DNA of 48,763 bases from Candidatus Poseidoniia archaeon. Lineage in GTDB: Archaea > Thermoplasmatota > Poseidoniia > MGIII > CG-Epi1. The DNA is taken from NCBI GenBank assembly GCA_030748895.1, contig JASMLC010000010.1, positions 1 to 48,763 on the forward strand, given 5' to 3'. The position numbers and the translations under genes were made by a program. This document shows positions 9,264 to 37,097 of the stretch, one piece after another; the stretch's first letter is position 1, and every line of letters starts with the position of its first letter. The notes beneath the pieces were generated by a model. The model saw only the letters and a list, made by a program, of their open reading frames with translations. It did no database searches and was not told where the DNA came from.

Positions 9264-13713
<4,450 letters not shown>

Positions 13714-13746
13714 CGGAACGCTCCCGCGCGCCCACGCGGGGACCGG

Positions 13747-13754
13747 TTTTATAG
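13747..13754 (-). promoter_or_regulatory. TATA box of the RND exporter - purA operon
   Basis: CTATAAAA on the minus strand, about 37 nt from the TTG start. That leaves a short leader of about 12 nt. Confidence 0.5.
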
Positions 13755-13779
13755 CATTGACGTAACGCGAACGGGAAGC

Positions 13780-13788
13780 TTATAATAA
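13780..13788 (+). promoter_or_regulatory. TATA box of the giant surface protein
   Basis: TTATAATAA, 25-29 nt before the ATG at 13813 depending on the register chosen. The upstream GTG at 13804 would be only about 20 nt away, too close, which favours the ATG. Confidence 0.5.
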
Positions 13789-13812
13789 CGCCGGACAGCG
13801 TGAGTGAGTCCC

Positions 13813-16800
13813 ATGGCCACCCGGTTTTTGCTGCTGGTTACCGCCGCAGTCCTGCTGGCACTCGCCGTCCCCACCGACGGTGAGGTGGACCTGCAGGCGC
13901 TCTCGCTGGAATACGGTTTTGCCGGTGAGGATGAAGTTCCCGTCACGCTTGTTGAGAGCGGCAGGGACAATGCCACTCTGTACCGCTACCTTATCCTGGA
14001 TGACTACTCCGAGGCGCCGGAAAACTGGTCGCAACCCGGGTTCAATGATTCGGGCTGGTTACTTGGCGCGGCACCATTTGCTGACTCGGAAGATGACAAT
14101 GTAGTGCCCGGAACCATCTGGGACACTGAGGGTAGTTCACCGTATGAGAATGACACCCTGCTGGTCAGGCACAGGTTCGACCTGCCGGTCGGAACAATCC
14201 TCTCAGCCGAGATTAATGTTGCATTCTCTAACTACTGCACGCCGTATCTCAATGGTAACCTCATCTACAGTGGTGATGGGGAAGAAGGTGCGAACGGACA
14301 CTCTATGCAATACTGGAACTCCGACGGGACTGAAGACATCTCGCCGGCCCTGTTTGATAGTCACGATAACCTGCTCGCGATTTACGCGCGGGACTATGTC
14401 TGGTCAGTAAACCAGAACCAACAGTGGCTTGACCCACGGATAACTGCCACCCATAATCCATTCAACACGACGACGGAACCGGTAATCCTGGGTGACCAGC
14501 TGACGCTGGTGCTGGGAGTGGCAAACGGAGGCAACGCGACCGCCGAGAATGCCACTATCACGCTGCAGGCCGATGGGGAAACCGTATGGCAGCAGTTCCT
14601 TTCGACAGCCGCCGCTAACACCAACACAACGATAGGGGTGGACTGGACTCCGCACAGGCTGGGTGACATTCCACTCAACCTGAGTATCAGTAGCGAGAGC
14701 AACGAGAGCAGCTACCTCAACAATTCACTGGAGATTATGCTTCATATCCATCACTGGGGGTATGCGCTGGAATACGGTGGCGTCATTCCAGTCGTAAATT
14801 CGACCCTTGTGACGTCACTCAACATCACAGTCCGCAACACCGGGGACCTCCCCGACGTGCTGACGTTCGCTACCAGTGAACGGCCGACGGGCTGGGACAT
14901 TGACTACCTGCCTGGAAGCATGTCGCTCGCTCCTGGAGAAAGTGGTGAACTGCTAGTCAGTGTCGAGGTTTCATCTATGACAACGGATGGAGAATGGAAT
15001 TTCTCAATCGAGACGACGTCGCAGAATTCTGAGCGGCGCGTCAGCTTCCCACTAGTCCAGAGCGGGCGTACTGCCGCGACTGAATGGAGCTGGACCAACT
15101 CCACCAATACCAGCCAGCAGCTCTACGATGACCTGAACTGGACGCTGCCTGGCTTCAACGACTCCGGCTGGCGTATGGATGGTGCTGCACCATTTGGCGA
15201 TAATTCCATAAGTGGAGTGAACTATAACACCGAGTGGGATGGGGACAACTACGCCTACTTCCGCCACGCTTTCAACGTCAGTGACCTCGACATCTACACG
15301 GAAGGCGTGCTGACCCTCAGCATAGCTACCAACGGCGCCGGCGCCCACTACCTCAATGGCAACCTGATTTTTAGCGATCTCGAAGGAGGTGACCACGGCG
15401 CCGATTACTGGAACGAGCAGGAACCCGACAACACGGATGCACTGCTGGAGGGGGAGAATGTCCTTGCTTCGGTGGTCCGCAATAATCAGAATACACAGTG
15501 GTACGACGAGCGGCTCGATGCAGACATCCGGCAAGCGAACCTCTGGAACTTCCACCCGCAGCCGCTCGGCATCTCGGTGCTGCTCGACACGAAAGCGCCC
15601 ACCTCGCTGGTCGAGGACCAGGGCGGCTTCCGCAATTCCACGGAGGTCGAAATTAACTGGCGGCTGCTCGCCAACGCGACCGACCTCGCCGGCTTCCGCA
15701 TCGACTACATGCTCAACAACGGCAGCGGCTGGCCAGGTGAAGACGCATGGGAAGCGCTGGGCGAGTTCAGCGGCTACAACACCACTTTCAGCGGCGGCAG
15801 CAACGGCACCCTCTACCGCTTCCGCTCAATCTCGTTCGACACCCGCGGCAACGTCGAGAGCAAGTCCACCTACGGCACCGAATTCCTCATCGATACTCGC
15901 CCACCCGAGTCGCTACTGCGCGTGGTTGATACCACCGGCAACCCGACCAACCTGACCGGCATCTACCTCGCATGGGAACCCGCCAGCGCTGCCGACTACG
16001 ATATCGCCAGCTACCAGTTGCAACTGCGCAACGGCTCTGGCTGGGATACACTGGCGCTCTCCGGCAGCGCGGGCGAGCACTACTTCGCGCCCGCCACCGA
16101 CGGAGAATACGCGTTCCGCGTGCTCGCGACCGATTACGCCGGCAACGGCGAGGCGAAGCCGGAGGCCGATGTCATAATCAGCTTCGACCGGCAGCGCCCC
16201 GAAGTGACGCTTTCAGCGCTGCCGCAGTTCTGGGGCGAAAGCGTCCTCGCGCTGCAGCTGCTGGGCGACACCAGCGGGCTCGCCGACGTCGAATTGCAAT
16301 ACGCGCTGCTTGCCGAGGGGAGCGAGATGATGCTCGGCTGGGGCACGCTGCCGGTCGCCTGGGACAACGGCAGCGCGCTCTTCCCGGGGCTGGCCGACGG
16401 GCGTAGCTACTGGTTCCGGCTGGCGCCGGTCGACACGGCGGGCAACACCGCCAGCCGCACACCGTATGTTTTCGAGACCAGCAGCGACGGGACGGCTGGC
16501 GCCAGCGTGACGTTGCCGGTGCTTCCGCTGAAACCGGTCTACATCGGGCTGCTCGCCAACGTCGCCGTCGCGGTTGATGTGGAGGGCGACGGCAGCTTCG
16601 AGGTCGAGCTGGACGAGTATTTCGGCAGCGACCCGTCGCAGATGCTCGCCATCCAGTTCCGCGTTGATTACGCCAGCGGAACTCTCCACTTCGGCGACGG
16701 CGAGGATGGCTACCGCCCGGCGGCCAGCGCAACGCTGCGCATCAGCTACGCCGGCTACGACGCGACGACTACGATTGACCTGACGCCGCCCGGCATCGTG

Positions 16801-32893: not shown

Positions 32894-33970
32894 ATGGCCC
32901 GGATTGCGGTCCTCGGCGCTGGCCTGGTTGGCGCGCTGGTGGCGACTGAACTTTCCAACGACCACTATATAAAAGTCATCGACCCTGACCGGGAAGCGTT
33001 AGCGCGTGTTTCGCAGCGTGCACCAGAAGCGGAGCTGTGTGCCGAGCGCTTCGATTCGGCAGCGCAGCTGGCGGGCTGCGACCTGGCGCTGAACTGCCTC
33101 CCCGGTAGCTTGGGACACGCTGCGCTCGAACGCATCATCGAAGCGGGTGTGGATTGCGTCGACATCTCCTTCACAGCCGAGGACCCGCGTACGCTGGACG
33201 GGGCGGCGCGCACGGCGGGCGTCACCGTAATTCCCGACGCCGGGATTGCGCCGGGATTCAGCAACCTGCTCGCCGCCGAACTGGCGGCGCAGGGACCGGC
33301 GCGGCTCGATATTTTCGTCGGCGGGCTGCCGCTACGACGCGACCCGCCGTGGGAATACGCGGCGCCCTTCTCGCCCATCGACGTCGTGGCGGAATACGAG
33401 CGGCCGGCGCGATTGAAACGCGCCGGCCGTTCCGTCGCGGAGCCAGCGCTCTCGGGCTGCCGCCCGTTCCGGCTGGCGCCGGGGCTGGTTCCCGAGCTGC
33501 CTGACGGCACCGAGCTGGAGGCGTTCCTGACCGACGGCTTGCGTAGCCTGCTCGACCTATCGGTGCCGGAAATGGCCGAGTTCACGCTGCGCTACCCCGG
33601 CCACGCTGCGCGATTCGCGGAGCTGCGCGACTCCGGCGCGCTCGTGGGCGAGGCACGCGAAGCGACGCTCGCCACGCTCTTCAGGGCGTGGCAACTGCAG
33701 CCGGGCGAAGCGGAGTTCACCCACTTGCAGGTGCTCGCGACGTTCGCCGACGGCTCGCAGCGCGGCTGGCTGGTGCACGACAACGGTTCGCAGGGCTGGA
33801 GCAGCATGGCGCGCACGACTGGCCTGACGGCGTGCGCGTTTGCGCGGCAGCTGCTTGCGGGCGCCATCACGGGGCCGGGGGTCGTGATGCCGGAGGCGTG
33901 CGCCGGGACGTTACCGGTAGTGCACGAATACCTTCAGTCGCGCGGCGTCACCGTCGAGCGCGTCGCGTAG
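32894..33970 (+). CDS. Saccharopine dehydrogenase family oxidoreductase
   Basis: A 358-residue NAD(P)-binding protein. The N-terminal Rossmann motif is AVLGAGLVGALVA (residues 5-17). The central LNCLPGSLG, CVDISF and PDAGIAPGFSNLLA segments and the later FVGGLPLRRDPPWEYA and RYPGHA motifs match the lysine-type saccharopine dehydrogenase (Lys9) superfamily, which includes L-lysine and carboxynorspermidine dehydrogenases. The substrate is not determinable. Its ATG follows the sepF stop without a gap, so the two are coupled. The 3' end overlaps the convergent MFS gene by 37 nt. Confidence 0.88.
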   Translation: MARIAVLGAGLVGALVATELSNDHYIKVIDPDREALARVSQRAPEAELCAERFDSAAQLAGCDLALNCLPGSLGHAALERIIEAGVDCVDISFTAEDPRTLDGAARTAGVTVIPDAGIAPGFSNLLAAELAAQGPARLDIFVGGLPLRRDPPWEYAAPFSPIDVVAEYERPARLKRAGRSVAEPALSGCRPFRLAPGLVPELPDGTELEAFLTDGLRSLLDLSVPEMAEFTLRYPGHAARFAELRDSGALVGEAREATLATLFRAWQLQPGEAEFTHLQVLATFADGSQRGWLVHDNGSQGWSSMARTTGLTACAFARQLLAGAITGPGVVMPEACAGTLPVVHEYLQSRGVTVERVA

Positions 33971-35151
33971 GCGGCGACCAGTGCACCGGCCAGCGTCAGC
34001 AGCGTCCCGAGCCAGAAAACTTGCGTGAACGGCAGCGAGCGATGCAACTCGCCCGCCAGCAGCGCGCCACTGCCAGCGCCGAGGAACATGCATGAATTGA
34101 GGACGCCAACGCCGCGACCGCGCAGCCGGTACGGCACACGGTCCGCGACGAGCGCCGTCGCAGAGACGTCGAACGCCATCCAGATGGGCGGCAGGAAGGC
34201 GGCGATGACCAGCAGCGGATGCGGATTGAGCGCGTAGGTCGCCATGCAGGCAACGAAGGCGAGGCTGACTAGCCGCAGCAGTTTCTCGCGCGGATGGCGG
34301 TCGGCCAGCCGGCCGAACCAGCGCGCCGTCAGCCCGTGCGCCAGCCCCGAGGCGAGCATCACCAGCCCCATGCGCGAGGTGCTGCCGGTCAGCGTGGTGA
34401 AGAAGGCAGGCGCGAAGGCGAGGAAAAAGTAGTAGCCGATGAAGAGCAGGACGGTCGCGACCCAGAGTGGCGCGAGCCGCCACAGCATCCCGGTCGCCGG
34501 CAGCGGCACTCCCCCGCCGGGGTCGCGCCCCGGCAGCGGCAGCGGCGCATCCGGTGCGGGCGTTCGCTCGCGCAGCCGCAGCAGCGCCGCCGCGGCGAAG
34601 ATGCCGAGCGCGCAGTTGACGAGGAAGGCGGCGTGCAGCACCGGGCTGGCGCTACCATATTCCGCCGCGGGGACTAGCAGCCCCCCGAGCAGGCCGCCTG
34701 TTCCCCAGCCGAGTCCGGCAGTCATCTGCAGCCGCCCCAGCTGCGCGCCGCGCGCGCCCGCATCGAGCTCGACGAAAAGCGTGTGAAGGTGAACCACGCC
34801 ACCGCGGAAGAACGACTGCAGCACGCGCAGCGCAATCAGCCCCCAAGTCCCGGCGAGCGGCATCGGCAGCGCCAGCAGCGACGAGAGCACTATCGCCAGC
34901 AGGACCACCCGCTTGCGGTTGCGCCAGCGGTCGGCCATCGCGCCCCAGAAGGCGGAGCTGCCGACCATCATGAACATCGGGACTCCGACGGCGAGCCCCA
35001 CCGCCCGCGCGCCGCCCAGCGCCTGCGCCTGTAGCAGCACCAGCGTGAACGAAAGGCCAATCGTGGCGTGGTAGGCGAGTGAGCCGGCCAGCGGCAGCGC
35101 CAATTGCTGCGCTGGCGTTGCCGTGCTCCCGGACTCCGTGCTACCGGCCAT
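33934..35151 (-). CDS. Major facilitator superfamily transporter
   Basis: A 405-residue protein with about 12 hydrophobic helices in two six-helix halves, separated by a Pro/Arg-rich cytoplasmic loop (RLRERTPAPDAPLPLPG). The MFS loop motif between TM2 and TM3 reads GAMADRWRNRKR, and the matching second-half loop is FGRLADRHPREK. TM8-9 and TM10 regions are typical of drug/sugar-type MFS proteins. The substrate is unknown. The ATG at 35151 is 23.5 nt from a CTATTAAT box that is part of a duplicated promoter element. Divergent from the DUF711 operon. Confidence 0.88.
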   Translation of the reverse strand: MAGSTESGSTATPAQQLALPLAGSLAYHATIGLSFTLVLLQAQALGGARAVGLAVGVPMFMMVGSSAFWGAMADRWRNRKRVVLLAIVLSSLLALPMPLAGTWGLIALRVLQSFFRGGVVHLHTLFVELDAGARGAQLGRLQMTAGLGWGTGGLLGGLLVPAAEYGSASPVLHAAFLVNCALGIFAAAALLRLRERTPAPDAPLPLPGRDPGGGVPLPATGMLWRLAPLWVATVLLFIGYYFFLAFAPAFFTTLTGSTSRMGLVMLASGLAHGLTARWFGRLADRHPREKLLRLVSLAFVACMATYALNPHPLLVIAAFLPPIWMAFDVSATALVADRVPYRLRGRGVGVLNSCMFLGAGSGALLAGELHRSLPFTQVFWLGTLLTLAGALVAAYATRSTVTPRD

Positions 35152-35161
35152 CGCGCGGGCA

Positions 35162-35190
35162 GCGCGCCCACTATTAATGGCGCGGGACTG
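35162..35190. promoter_or_regulatory. Duplicated promoter element, copy 1 (drives MFS leftward)
   Basis: A 29-nt element identical to 35263-35291 at 28 positions, in direct orientation. It carries a TATA-like CTATTAAT (35171-35178) between CGCGCC and GGCGCG arms. The box reads ATTAATAG on minus and is centred 23.5 nt from the MFS start. Confidence 0.7.
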
Positions 35191-35234
35191 CTGCGCCGGC
35201 TCCTTCTGGTCGCCGGCTCCGCGATGCAGCCTTT

Positions 35235-35254
35235 CTGGTGGCTAATGCCACCAG
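35235..35254. promoter_or_regulatory. Perfect 20-nt inverted repeat between the duplicated promoters
   Basis: CTGGTGGC TAAT GCCACCAG: 8-bp perfect arms and a 4-nt AT-rich centre, lying between the two TATA elements. Candidate shared operator for the divergent MFS and DUF711-IPK transcripts. Confidence 0.65.
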
Positions 35255-35262
35255 CGGCTGCG

Positions 35263-35291
35263 GCGCGCCCGCTATTAATGGCGCGGGACTG
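35263..35291. promoter_or_regulatory. Duplicated promoter element, copy 2 (drives DUF711-IPK rightward)
   Basis: Second copy of the 29-nt element. Its CTATTAAT (35272-35279) is centred 23.5 nt upstream of the DUF711 GTG at 35299, exactly the spacing copy 1 has to the MFS start on the other strand. Confidence 0.7.
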
Positions 35292-35298
35292 GACCGCC

Positions 35299-36330
35299 GT
35301 GATAATCCGCGCCGTGACCGGTTTTGCCCCGCCCGGCGAGGGGGCGCTGCGCGCGATGAAGGTCGCTGAACACTTACGTAGTTGCGGCCACGAAGTGCAG
35401 ACAGTGCGGCTCGCGACGCCGCCGTGGGAAAGCTGGTGCGCAGCCGACGCGCTGCCGGAACGCGCGCGCGAACTGGAGGCGGCAGCGGTCGCAACCGGCG
35501 TCCAGTTCCTGTCGCTCGGGCCGTGCTCCGCCGAGGGCGTCCCGGCCGTGGTCGAGGCGCTGCTCGCGACGCAGGCGACCTTCTGCGCGGCGCGGCTCGA
35601 TAACGGCGGGAGCGCAGCCGCCGCGGAGGCGATGCTGCGACTGGCGCAGGCCGACCCGCAGCACAACCTGCGCTTCGCGGCGCTGGCGCGCGTCGAAGCC
35701 GGGACGCCGTTCTTCCCGGCGGCGTTCGCGCAGCGCGAAGGCTTCGCGCTGGCGATGGAGCTGACGCCGTCATTGCTGGCTGCGGGTGGCGACGTCGCTG
35801 CGCTTGCTCCCGGGCTCGAGGCGCTGGAGCGCGACGCGCGCGCGGCGCAAATGCCGTTTCTCGGTATCGACCCCAGCCTTGCACCCGGGCTCTACGGCGA
35901 AGGCTCGGTGGCGCGGCTGATGGCACTGCGGGGCGCGCCGGTCGGTTCGACCGGCGCGCCCGCTCTCGTCGGCGAGCTAACTGCGGCGCTGCGCGCACTG
36001 CCGGTCGAGCAGGTCGGCTACCGCGGCGTCATGTTCGCCGTGATGGAGGACCCGGGACTGGTCGAGGCGCTGCGGCAGCGCGAATTCGACATCGGCGACC
36101 TGCTCGAGTATGCGAGCCGCTGCGGGACCGGGCTCGACACGGTGCCGCTGCCGGGCGACGTCGGCGTGGACCGGCTGGCGGCACTGCTCGACCGCGTCGC
36201 TGCCGTAGCTAATAAAGGCGCCAAACCACTCTCGGCGCGGCTCTTCCCGGCGCCCGGAATCGCAGCGGGCGAGACGGTCGCGACCGGGTCACCCTACCTT
36301 TTCGACTGCCCCGCCATGGAGCTGCCATGA
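35299..36330 (+). CDS. DUF711/UPF0210 family protein
   Basis: A 343-residue protein of the DUF711 family, related in fold to pyruvate formate-lyase-type domains and of unknown function. I start it at GTG (VIIRAVTGFAP), because family members begin with a short strand of the type IR-x-V/I-T and the TATA box lies 23.5 nt upstream; longer open-frame starts precede the promoter. Conserved segments are GTPFFPAAF, GYRGVMFAVMEDPGLVEAL, CGTGLDTVPLPGDVGVDRL and KPLSARLFPAPG near the C-terminus. It overlaps the isopentenyl phosphate kinase gene by 4 nt (ATGA). Confidence 0.9.
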   Translation: MIIRAVTGFAPPGEGALRAMKVAEHLRSCGHEVQTVRLATPPWESWCAADALPERARELEAAAVATGVQFLSLGPCSAEGVPAVVEALLATQATFCAARLDNGGSAAAAEAMLRLAQADPQHNLRFAALARVEAGTPFFPAAFAQREGFALAMELTPSLLAAGGDVAALAPGLEALERDARAAQMPFLGIDPSLAPGLYGEGSVARLMALRGAPVGSTGAPALVGELTAALRALPVEQVGYRGVMFAVMEDPGLVEALRQREFDIGDLLEYASRCGTGLDTVPLPGDVGVDRLAALLDRVAAVANKGAKPLSARLFPAPGIAAGETVATGSPYLFDCPAMELP

Positions 36331-37097
36331 ATCTGGTCAAGTGGGGCGGCTCGCTCATCACCGACAAAACGGCCGCGAAGCCGGCGCCGCAGCGCGAGCG
36401 TATCGCGGCGCTGGCCGCAGCGCTCGCCGCCGGGGGCGGGCCGGCGGTGCTGGTGCACGGCGCCGGTTCGTTCGGCCACCCGCTCGCCAAGCGCTTCGGG
36501 CTGGCGCAGGGGAGCGACGGCTCGCCCGAGCAGGCGGCAGCGGTGGTGCGGACGCGGCAGCAGGTGCGCACGCTCAACGCGCTGGTCTGCGAAGCGCTCG
36601 CGGCGGCCGGGCTGGAACCAGTTCCAATCCTGCCATCGCAGGCGCTGCGCACCGCTGGCCCGCAGGACATCGTGGAGTTCCCGGCCGGCAGCTTCGCGGC
36701 GGCGCTGGAGGCGGGCCGCCTGCCGGTCACCTGCGGCGACGTCACCGACGACGATGCGCAAGGTATCGCCATCCTGAGCGGCGACACGCTGATGCTGGCG
36801 CTAGCGCGCACGCTGCGGCCGCAGCGCGCGCTGTTCGTCATCAATCACCCCGGTGTGATGGACCGCGACCCGGCCGAGCCGGGAGCGCAGCTCGTCGCAC
36901 AGCTCGACGCGGACGCCCGCACGGCGATGCGCGCGCAGCGGATGGACGTGCCGGGCGCCGACGTCACCGGCGGGATGTGGGGCAAGCTCGAGGCGGCGGC
37001 CGCCATCGCCCGCGAATGCGAGTGCCGCATCGTCGGCGCAGGCGGCTTCGCAGGGGCGCTCGCGGGCGACCCGGCGGGAACGCTGGTGCTGCCGTGA
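36327..37097 (+). CDS. ipk: Isopentenyl phosphate kinase
   Basis: A 256-residue amino-acid-kinase-fold enzyme that phosphorylates isopentenyl phosphate to isopentenyl diphosphate in the archaeal mevalonate pathway. The ATP/phosphate motif KWGGSLITDK is at residues 5-14. HGAGSFGHPLAKRF carries the His that distinguishes IPK from other kinases of the fold. GDVTDDDAQGIAILSGDT and ADVTGGMWGKLEAA complete the signature. It is embedded between DUF711 and an unknown protein, with 4-nt overlaps at both ends (ATGA and GTGA), so all three are one translational unit. It is linked functionally to HMG-CoA reductase about 10 kb away. Confidence 0.93.
   Translation: MNLVKWGGSLITDKTAAKPAPQRERIAALAAALAAGGGPAVLVHGAGSFGHPLAKRFGLAQGSDGSPEQAAAVVRTRQQVRTLNALVCEALAAAGLEPVPILPSQALRTAGPQDIVEFPAGSFAAALEAGRLPVTCGDVTDDDAQGIAILSGDTLMLALARTLRPQRALFVINHPGVMDRDPAEPGAQLVAQLDADARTAMRAQRMDVPGADVTGGMWGKLEAAAAIARECECRIVGAGGFAGALAGDPAGTLVLP

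What the first reader, a model, noticed from the sequence alone, without database searches (positions are those of the whole stretch)
35162..35291. Duplicated promoter elements around a perfect 20-nt palindrome at a divergent promoter
A 29-nt element occurs twice (28/29 identical) 101 nt apart. Copy 1 places its TATA box 23.5 nt from the MFS start on minus; copy 2 places the same box 23.5 nt from the DUF711 start on plus. Because the box is nearly palindromic, one sequence works in both directions. Between them lies CTGGTGGC-TAAT-GCCACCAG, a perfect inverted repeat. This is a ready-made shared switch for an MFS transporter and a DUF711-isopentenyl-phosphate-kinase operon.
Basis: partly seen in the sequence, partly recalled or inferred. 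Interest (0 to 1): 0.62.

Follow-up and report, generated by a model that had tools for sequence, protein, structure and literature searches.

The report
Stem-loop repeat inserted in shared promoter

Summary
In detail: a 29-nt element occurs twice (28/29), 101 nt apart, with a perfect 8+8 palindrome between. The reading as a palindrome-based shared switch is not supported. Five congeneric Marine Group III genomes keep the divergent MFS / DUF711-IPK pair, but with one copy of the element, a gap of 41-48 nt, one CTATTAAT box about 24 nt from each start (18 on the DUF711 side in one), and no palindrome. The ancestral state is thus a single bidirectional TATA promoter serving two probably leaderless genes. 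Six of 98 divergent pairs in 60% of this genome have this compact single-box form; three checked in relatives are conserved. In the window species a 101-bp insertion split it: a 72-nt stem-loop repeat plus duplication of the 29-bp promoter core. The repeat belongs to a dispersed family (about 20 copies here, 1-2 in the two nearest species, none detected in other relatives) with covarying stems. Copies are often flanked by direct repeats of host DNA (15-77 nt) that abut the 3' end; all four sites testable against relatives are empty there. The palindrome is the upper stem of hairpin 2. How the family moves is unknown (no Y1 transposase). This is a REP/YPAL/RPE-like kind of element, apparently undescribed.

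The parts
33934..35151 (-). MFS transporter gene, ATG start at 35151
   Evidence: PF07690 E 1.4e-34; orthologs with the same start in five congeners
35162..35190 (.). Promoter core copy 1 (left copy of duplicated host DNA D); serves MFS on the minus strand
   Evidence: 28/29 identical to copy 2; the left context is the ancestral MFS side
35171..35178 (.). TATA-like box CTATTAAT of copy 1, centre 23.5 nt from the MFS start
   Evidence: AT boxes peak at -24 to -28 before start codons in this genome
35191..35262 (+). Inserted 72-nt stem-loop repeat element (E), ends uncertain by 1-2 nt
   Evidence: full-length homolog at C9:13562-13634, 79% identity, E 2.7e-10, score 84 versus at most 53 for shuffles; absent in five relatives
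35195..35217 (+). Hairpin 1 of the element (GCCGGC-TCCTTCTGGTC-GCCGGC)
   Evidence: covarying stem, 97.5% of cells paired; one pair has four pair types in five members
35226..35261 (+).
   Evidence: R2 hit at 35222-35263, 42.7 bits; covariation in 11 members; whole element folds with z -5.0
35235..35254 (.).
35263..35291 (.). Promoter core copy 2 (right copy of D, abutting the 3' end of the element); serves DUF711 on the plus strand
   Evidence: right context is the ancestral DUF711 side
35272..35279 (.). TATA-like box CTATTAAT of copy 2, centre 23.5 nt from the DUF711 GTG
35299..36330 (+). DUF711 gene, GTG start; an in-frame ATG at 35278 inside copy 2 is a possible alternative start not conserved in relatives
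   Evidence: PF05167 E 9.1e-42; GTG conserved in congeners
36327..37097 (+). Isopentenyl phosphate kinase gene, overlapping the DUF711 stop
   Evidence: NF040647 above its cut-off

Best explanation
The ancestor had one compact bidirectional promoter: a single near-symmetric TATA box midway in a 47-nt gap, about 24 nt from the start codon of each probably leaderless gene, so TBP/TFB could assemble facing either way (shown by comparison; use in both directions inferred from conservation and spacing). In the window lineage a 72-nt stem-loop repeat (two hairpins) was copied into that promoter, and 29 bp of target carrying the whole core promoter was duplicated on either side (shown: empty site in five relatives, homologous repeats elsewhere, direct repeat). 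MFS is now probably driven by copy 1 and DUF711-IPK by copy 2, each at the old spacing (inferred). The insertion therefore uncoupled two genes that had competed for one box, and may add inward transcripts that start near 35199 (+) and 35252 (-) and give leadered mRNAs (prediction). The repeat family has a defined 3' end, a variable 5' end and long, variable flanking duplications; it most likely spreads by copying a hairpin-forming intermediate into a staggered break or by replication template switching (inferred, weak).
For: Single-copy empty site, gap 47, 47, 48, 47, 41 nt, in all five congeners; 46 nt plus a 101-bp insertion equals the present 147 nt. Both copies lack one C that the congeners have (GGCGCGG-GACTG), so the duplication followed that deletion. 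Core conserved against 43-77% identity at fourfold sites. AT box at -24 to -28 is the usual promoter. Of 98 divergent pairs, none has a gap of 0-42 nt and six have gaps of 43-53 nt with one central AT box; the three aligned with relatives are conserved. Dispersed family: 20 copies in the own genome, 2 and 1 in the two closest species, none in 37 other genomes; covarying hairpins. Abutting flanking direct repeats: 7/22 versus 1% of control places, p about 1.5e-9. Other sites empty in relatives: C1:68320 in all five (128 bp), C1:69103-69221 in G001/G002 (about 127 bp), Hef gene in G001 (72 bp, in frame).
Against: No transcript data; direction of use is inferred. Only one genome of this species is held, a 72-contig assembly; misassembly is unlikely (copies differ at one base and the insert is unique) but not excluded. 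About half the family members have no clear flanking repeat, so the duplication may be a frequent companion rather than an obligate product. Covariation can also arise from template switching inside hairpins, and several members were found with a model that rewards pairing. No mobilising enzyme was identified.
Confidence: 0.77

Rival explanations
1. One reading: duplicated promoter elements plus a palindromic operator form a shared regulatory switch for the MFS and DUF711-IPK genes.
For: The palindrome is perfect, lies between the two boxes, and its centre is about 54 nt upstream of the DUF711 start, where archaeal activators can bind (general knowledge).
Against: Absent in five relatives that keep the gene pair; the same hairpin occurs at about 20 unrelated places; perfect 8-bp inverted repeats are common here (70 in the window).
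Confidence: 0.06
2. A plain local tandem duplication of about 101 bp (promoter plus neighbouring gene start) followed by divergence made the structure; no mobile element is involved.
For: Family members also sit in tandem arrays (C8:25620/25695 period 75, C4:106923/107001 period 78); tandem duplication needs no enzyme.
Against: The 72 nt do not match the MFS or DUF711 5' ends above background but match C9:13562-13634 over their full length.
Confidence: 0.08
3. The inserted repeat is a structured RNA element whose spread and covarying stems reflect RNA function, such as a leader or processing hairpin; its place in the promoter is adaptive.
For: Covariation in both hairpins; 16 of 17 placed copies are intergenic; predicted inward transcripts would carry it.
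Against: Mostly species-specific positions, both orientations to genes, one copy inside a coding sequence, no Rfam family above gathering score.
Confidence: 0.09

Closest known systems
Archaeal bidirectional (BRE-TATA-BRE) promoters, Pyrococcus furiosus (PMC6640164); Warman et al. 2021, seen only as cited in PMC10268837
   Same: One near-symmetric TATA box drives both strands; the in vitro start sites lie 49 bp apart, matching the 47-48-nt gap of the ancestral MFS/DUF711 promoter if both genes are leaderless.
   Different: In P. furiosus the reverse product is mostly antisense RNA; here both products would be protein-coding mRNAs with no leader, and in the window species the promoter is split in two.
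YPAL / RU-2 palindromic elements of Yersinia (reviewed in PMC2229807)
   Same: Small palindromic mobile repeats with inverted repeats inside, not A+T-rich, target duplications of variable size (3-26 bp), empty sites in relatives, no known transposase.
   Different: 168 bp versus 45-72 nt here; duplications here reach 29-77 nt; different domain of life, no tested sequence relation.
Rickettsia palindromic elements (RPE; PMC2229807)
   Same: Species-group-specific hairpin repeats found both between genes and in frame inside protein genes (here Hef).
   Different: 105-146 bp; only one in-gene case found here; no sequence relation tested.
REP / BIME repeats and REP-associated Y1 transposases (PMC2817692, PMC3733652)
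   Same: Short dispersed palindromes, mostly intergenic, some in tandem clusters.
   Different: About 20 copies rather than over 100, no Y1 transposase gene in the genome, long flanking duplications.

Membership tests
Archaeal bidirectional TATA promoter (ancestral state) | One TATA box central between two opposite start sites about 49-50 bp apart | tested here: met
   Gap 47-48 nt, one CTATTAAT 23.5-24.5 nt from each start codon in four congeners; the fifth has gap 41. Start sites themselves inferred from start codons.
Archaeal bidirectional TATA promoter (ancestral state) | BRE on both sides of the box | tested here: inconclusive
   Flanks CCG / GGC are conserved but the BRE consensus of this lineage is unknown.
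Archaeal bidirectional TATA promoter (ancestral state) | Transcription in both directions | not testable with these tools
   No RNA data.
REP / RAYT system | Y1 transposase (PF01797) in the genome | tested here: not met
   No match in the 97%-complete genome; 5 of 14 controls ring.
REP / RAYT system | More than 100 copies | tested here: not met
   20 copies at E <= 0.01.
MITE | Terminal inverted repeats | tested here: met
   Outer stem GCAGCC/GGCTGC of hairpin 2 closes the short form of the element.
MITE | Short target duplication of fixed length | tested here: not met
   Abutting duplications of about 15 to 77 nt.
YPAL/RU-2-like palindromic element | Target duplications of variable size and empty sites in relatives | tested here: met
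YPAL/RU-2-like palindromic element | Sequence homology to YPAL | not tested
   No YPAL sequence was compared; no relation is claimed.
RPE | In-frame insertion in protein genes | tested here: met
   One case: 72 nt in frame in the Hef gene linker, absent in G001.
Known Rfam RNA family | Match above gathering score | tested here: not met
   Best 21.3 bits against a gathering score of 41.2.

The most novel reading that the evidence does not exclude
A new class of archaeal mobile stem-loop element that spreads without a recognisable transposase by a copy mechanism with a fixed 3' end, variable 5' end and long variable target duplications (15-77 bp), resembling target-primed retroposition or hairpin-driven template switching, and that rewires genes by duplicating whole core promoters.
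Probability: 0.25. Interest if true: 0.75.

Novelty: new variant of a known kind. Interest (0 to 1): 0.55.

Why it matters
It shows, with before and after states in close relatives, how one shared archaeal promoter can become two in a single step: a small hairpin repeat inserts and its target duplication carries the whole core promoter. It also reveals an apparently undescribed repeat family in Marine Group III archaea whose long, variable flanking duplications fit no standard transposition signature and raise a testable question about how hairpin repeats move without a transposase. The lower limit of about 43-49 nt between divergent genes gives a simple handle on shared TATA boxes in leaderless archaea.

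Tried and rejected
1) Insert as a diverged copy of the MFS 5' end: tempting by eye, not above background. 2) First genome search for the insert found no strong copy elsewhere; a Smith-Waterman scan of held stretches then found the C9 copy, so the first search was a false negative. 3) Pattern GCTCCYTYYGGTCGC with 2 mismatches: mostly chance (62 hits for the reversed pattern); only hits with at most 1 mismatch were used. 4) R1 matches below about 30 bits not trusted (66 'hits' at E<1). 5) C2:51849/51926 as a second recent promoter duplication: both boxes are present but different in relatives, so not recent. 6) Viral-contig match to the box pattern: unrelated coding sequence. 7) Rfam: nothing above gathering score. 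8) Reverse transcriptase hunt by YxDD motif in 60% of the genome: the candidates are other protein families or match none; a weak test. 9) Undirected flank-repeat test: controls with internal coding repeats blur it; the abutting test was used instead. 10) A spike at 47-49 nt in divergent gaps: really a sharp lower edge, not a spike.

Full report
OBSERVATION. The 29-nt direct repeat (35162-35190, 35263-35291; 28/29) and the 20-nt palindrome (35235-35254) are there as described and each is unique in the 1.41-Mb genome. The CTATTAAT box lies 23.5 nt from both start codons. The palindrome alone is unremarkable, since the window has 70 perfect inverted repeats of this size class.

ORGANISM. Same-genus records in GTDB are MAGs titled Euryarchaeota archaeon (NP106, NP112, ARS43, Cayman_92) and Ca. 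Poseidoniia 'MGIII-9' from ALOHA, so the window is from a Marine Group III archaeon (inferred from these titles). Genes: MFS_1, DUF711, isopentenyl phosphate kinase. The MFS substrate and DUF711 function are unknown.

ANCESTRAL STATE. Five congeners keep the divergent pair. In all of them the gap is 47, 47, 48, 47 or 41 nt, with one box CCGCTATTAATGGC and no palindrome. The core does not vary (one N aside) while fourfold-degenerate sites of the flanking genes keep only 43-77% identity to the window, so it is under selection. In the held sequence of this genome AT-rich boxes peak 24-28 nt before start codons (on the first 450 kb), the signature of leaderless archaeal promoters. Of 98 divergent pairs in 840 kb none has a gap of 0-42 nt, and six with gaps of 43-53 nt have a single AT box in the middle. 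Three such pairs were aligned with relatives and the central box is conserved. Gene starts come from a simple coding-score caller and are not experimentally known. P. furiosus work shows bidirectional firing from one TATA box with starts 49 bp apart in vitro (PMC6640164).

WHAT HAPPENED IN THE WINDOW SPECIES. The gap is 147 nt = 46 + 101. Both copies of the core share a one-base deletion absent from the congeners, so it was there before the duplication. The 72 nt between them are not a diverged MFS or DUF711 5' end. They match C9:13562-13634 over their whole length (79%, E 2.7e-10). That copy sits in frame inside the linker of a Hef helicase-nuclease gene (NF010337), and the close relative G001 lacks 72 nt there.

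THE REPEAT FAMILY. A core found by sequence alone pointed to further copies. A five-member alignment folds into two hairpins with 91% of cells paired against 25-53% for slid controls, and one pair shows four pair types in five members. The model finds 20 copies in this genome, two in G001, one in G002, none in G003-G005 and none in the 34 other Poseidoniia genomes searched, with one weak match in 400 kb of a Marine Group II genome. 16 of 17 copies with gene context are intergenic.

FLANKING DUPLICATIONS. Host DNA is repeated directly on both sides of many copies, and in the eight best cases the right copy starts at base 0 or 1 after the element: window 28-29 nt, C1:68320 77 nt (62/77), C2:75384 25 nt (23/25), C1:129762 about 55 nt, C4:106923 15 nt, C3:102281, C1:143719, G001:C99. 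Seven of 22 reach a score that 1% of 6022 intergenic control places reach (p about 1.5e-9). The left copy ends 0-31 nt before hairpin 2, so the 3' end is fixed and the 5' end varies. Sites checked against relatives are empty there: C1:68320 in all five congeners with one copy of the duplicated DNA, C1:69103-69221 in G001 and G002, the Hef site in G001, and the window site in all five. One copy (C1:76799) is shared with G001 at the orthologous place, an older insertion.

MECHANISM. Shown: insertion of a repeat-family member, duplication of the core promoter, preserved box-to-start spacing. Inferred: each gene now uses its own box; before, both used one. Predicted: each box still has its opposite polarity, so weak inward starts near 35199 (+) and 35252 (-) may make leadered mRNAs. 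How the element moves is open. There is no Y1 transposase, a motif search for reverse transcriptase in 60% of the genome found none (weak), and the length of the duplications does not fit a standard MITE pattern. Copying of a hairpin into staggered ends, target-primed copying, or replication template switching would each leave D-E-D with variable D.

COMPARISON. The promoter is a known kind (archaeal bidirectional TATA promoter). The repeat works like YPAL/RU-2 (variable target duplications 3-26 bp) and RPE (in-frame insertions) as reviewed in PMC2229807, but homology to either was not tested and is not claimed. It fails REP/RAYT membership on copy number and transposase, and MITE membership on target-duplication length.

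VERDICT. Observation right, interpretation half right. A modest but clean case of promoter duplication by a small mobile hairpin element in an uncultured archaeon, with an unexplained mode of spread.

Noticed in passing
L095:13561-13635 (own genome C9), gene 12888-15245 minus: The Hef helicase-nuclease gene carries an in-frame 24-codon copy of the repeat in its interdomain linker, absent in relative G001.
   Followed up: yes
L081:3719-3993 (own genome C1:143719-143993): Cluster of three repeat elements beside a tRNA-His gene, with part of the tRNA 3' half duplicated next to them.
   Followed up: partly
L032:8200-8480 (own genome C1:68200-68480): A repeat insertion at the 3' end of a UppP/BacA-like gene duplicated about 77 nt, so the gene now ends in the left copy with a new stop; relatives have one copy.
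   Followed up: yes
L044:5561-5720 (C8:25561-25720) and L161 (C4:106923-107045): Tandem arrays of the repeat with periods of 75 and 78 nt.
   Followed up: partly
C8:75401-75447, C3:13459-13505, C1:67468-67516, C7:37567-37614, C7:15999-16041, C4:1193-1245 of the own genome: Other divergent gene pairs only 43-53 nt apart with a single central AT box: candidates for shared bidirectional promoters; the first three are conserved in the genus.
   Followed up: partly
window 35278-35280: The duplicated, one-base-shortened promoter copy 2 contains an ATG in frame with DUF711 (MARDWTAVIIR...), a possible new start not available in relatives.
   Followed up: no
L026 (G004:C115): In this relative the DUF711 side of the promoter is 6 nt shorter (box to GTG 17.5 nt) and the gene is split in two frames; could be a sequencing error or a decaying gene.
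   Followed up: no
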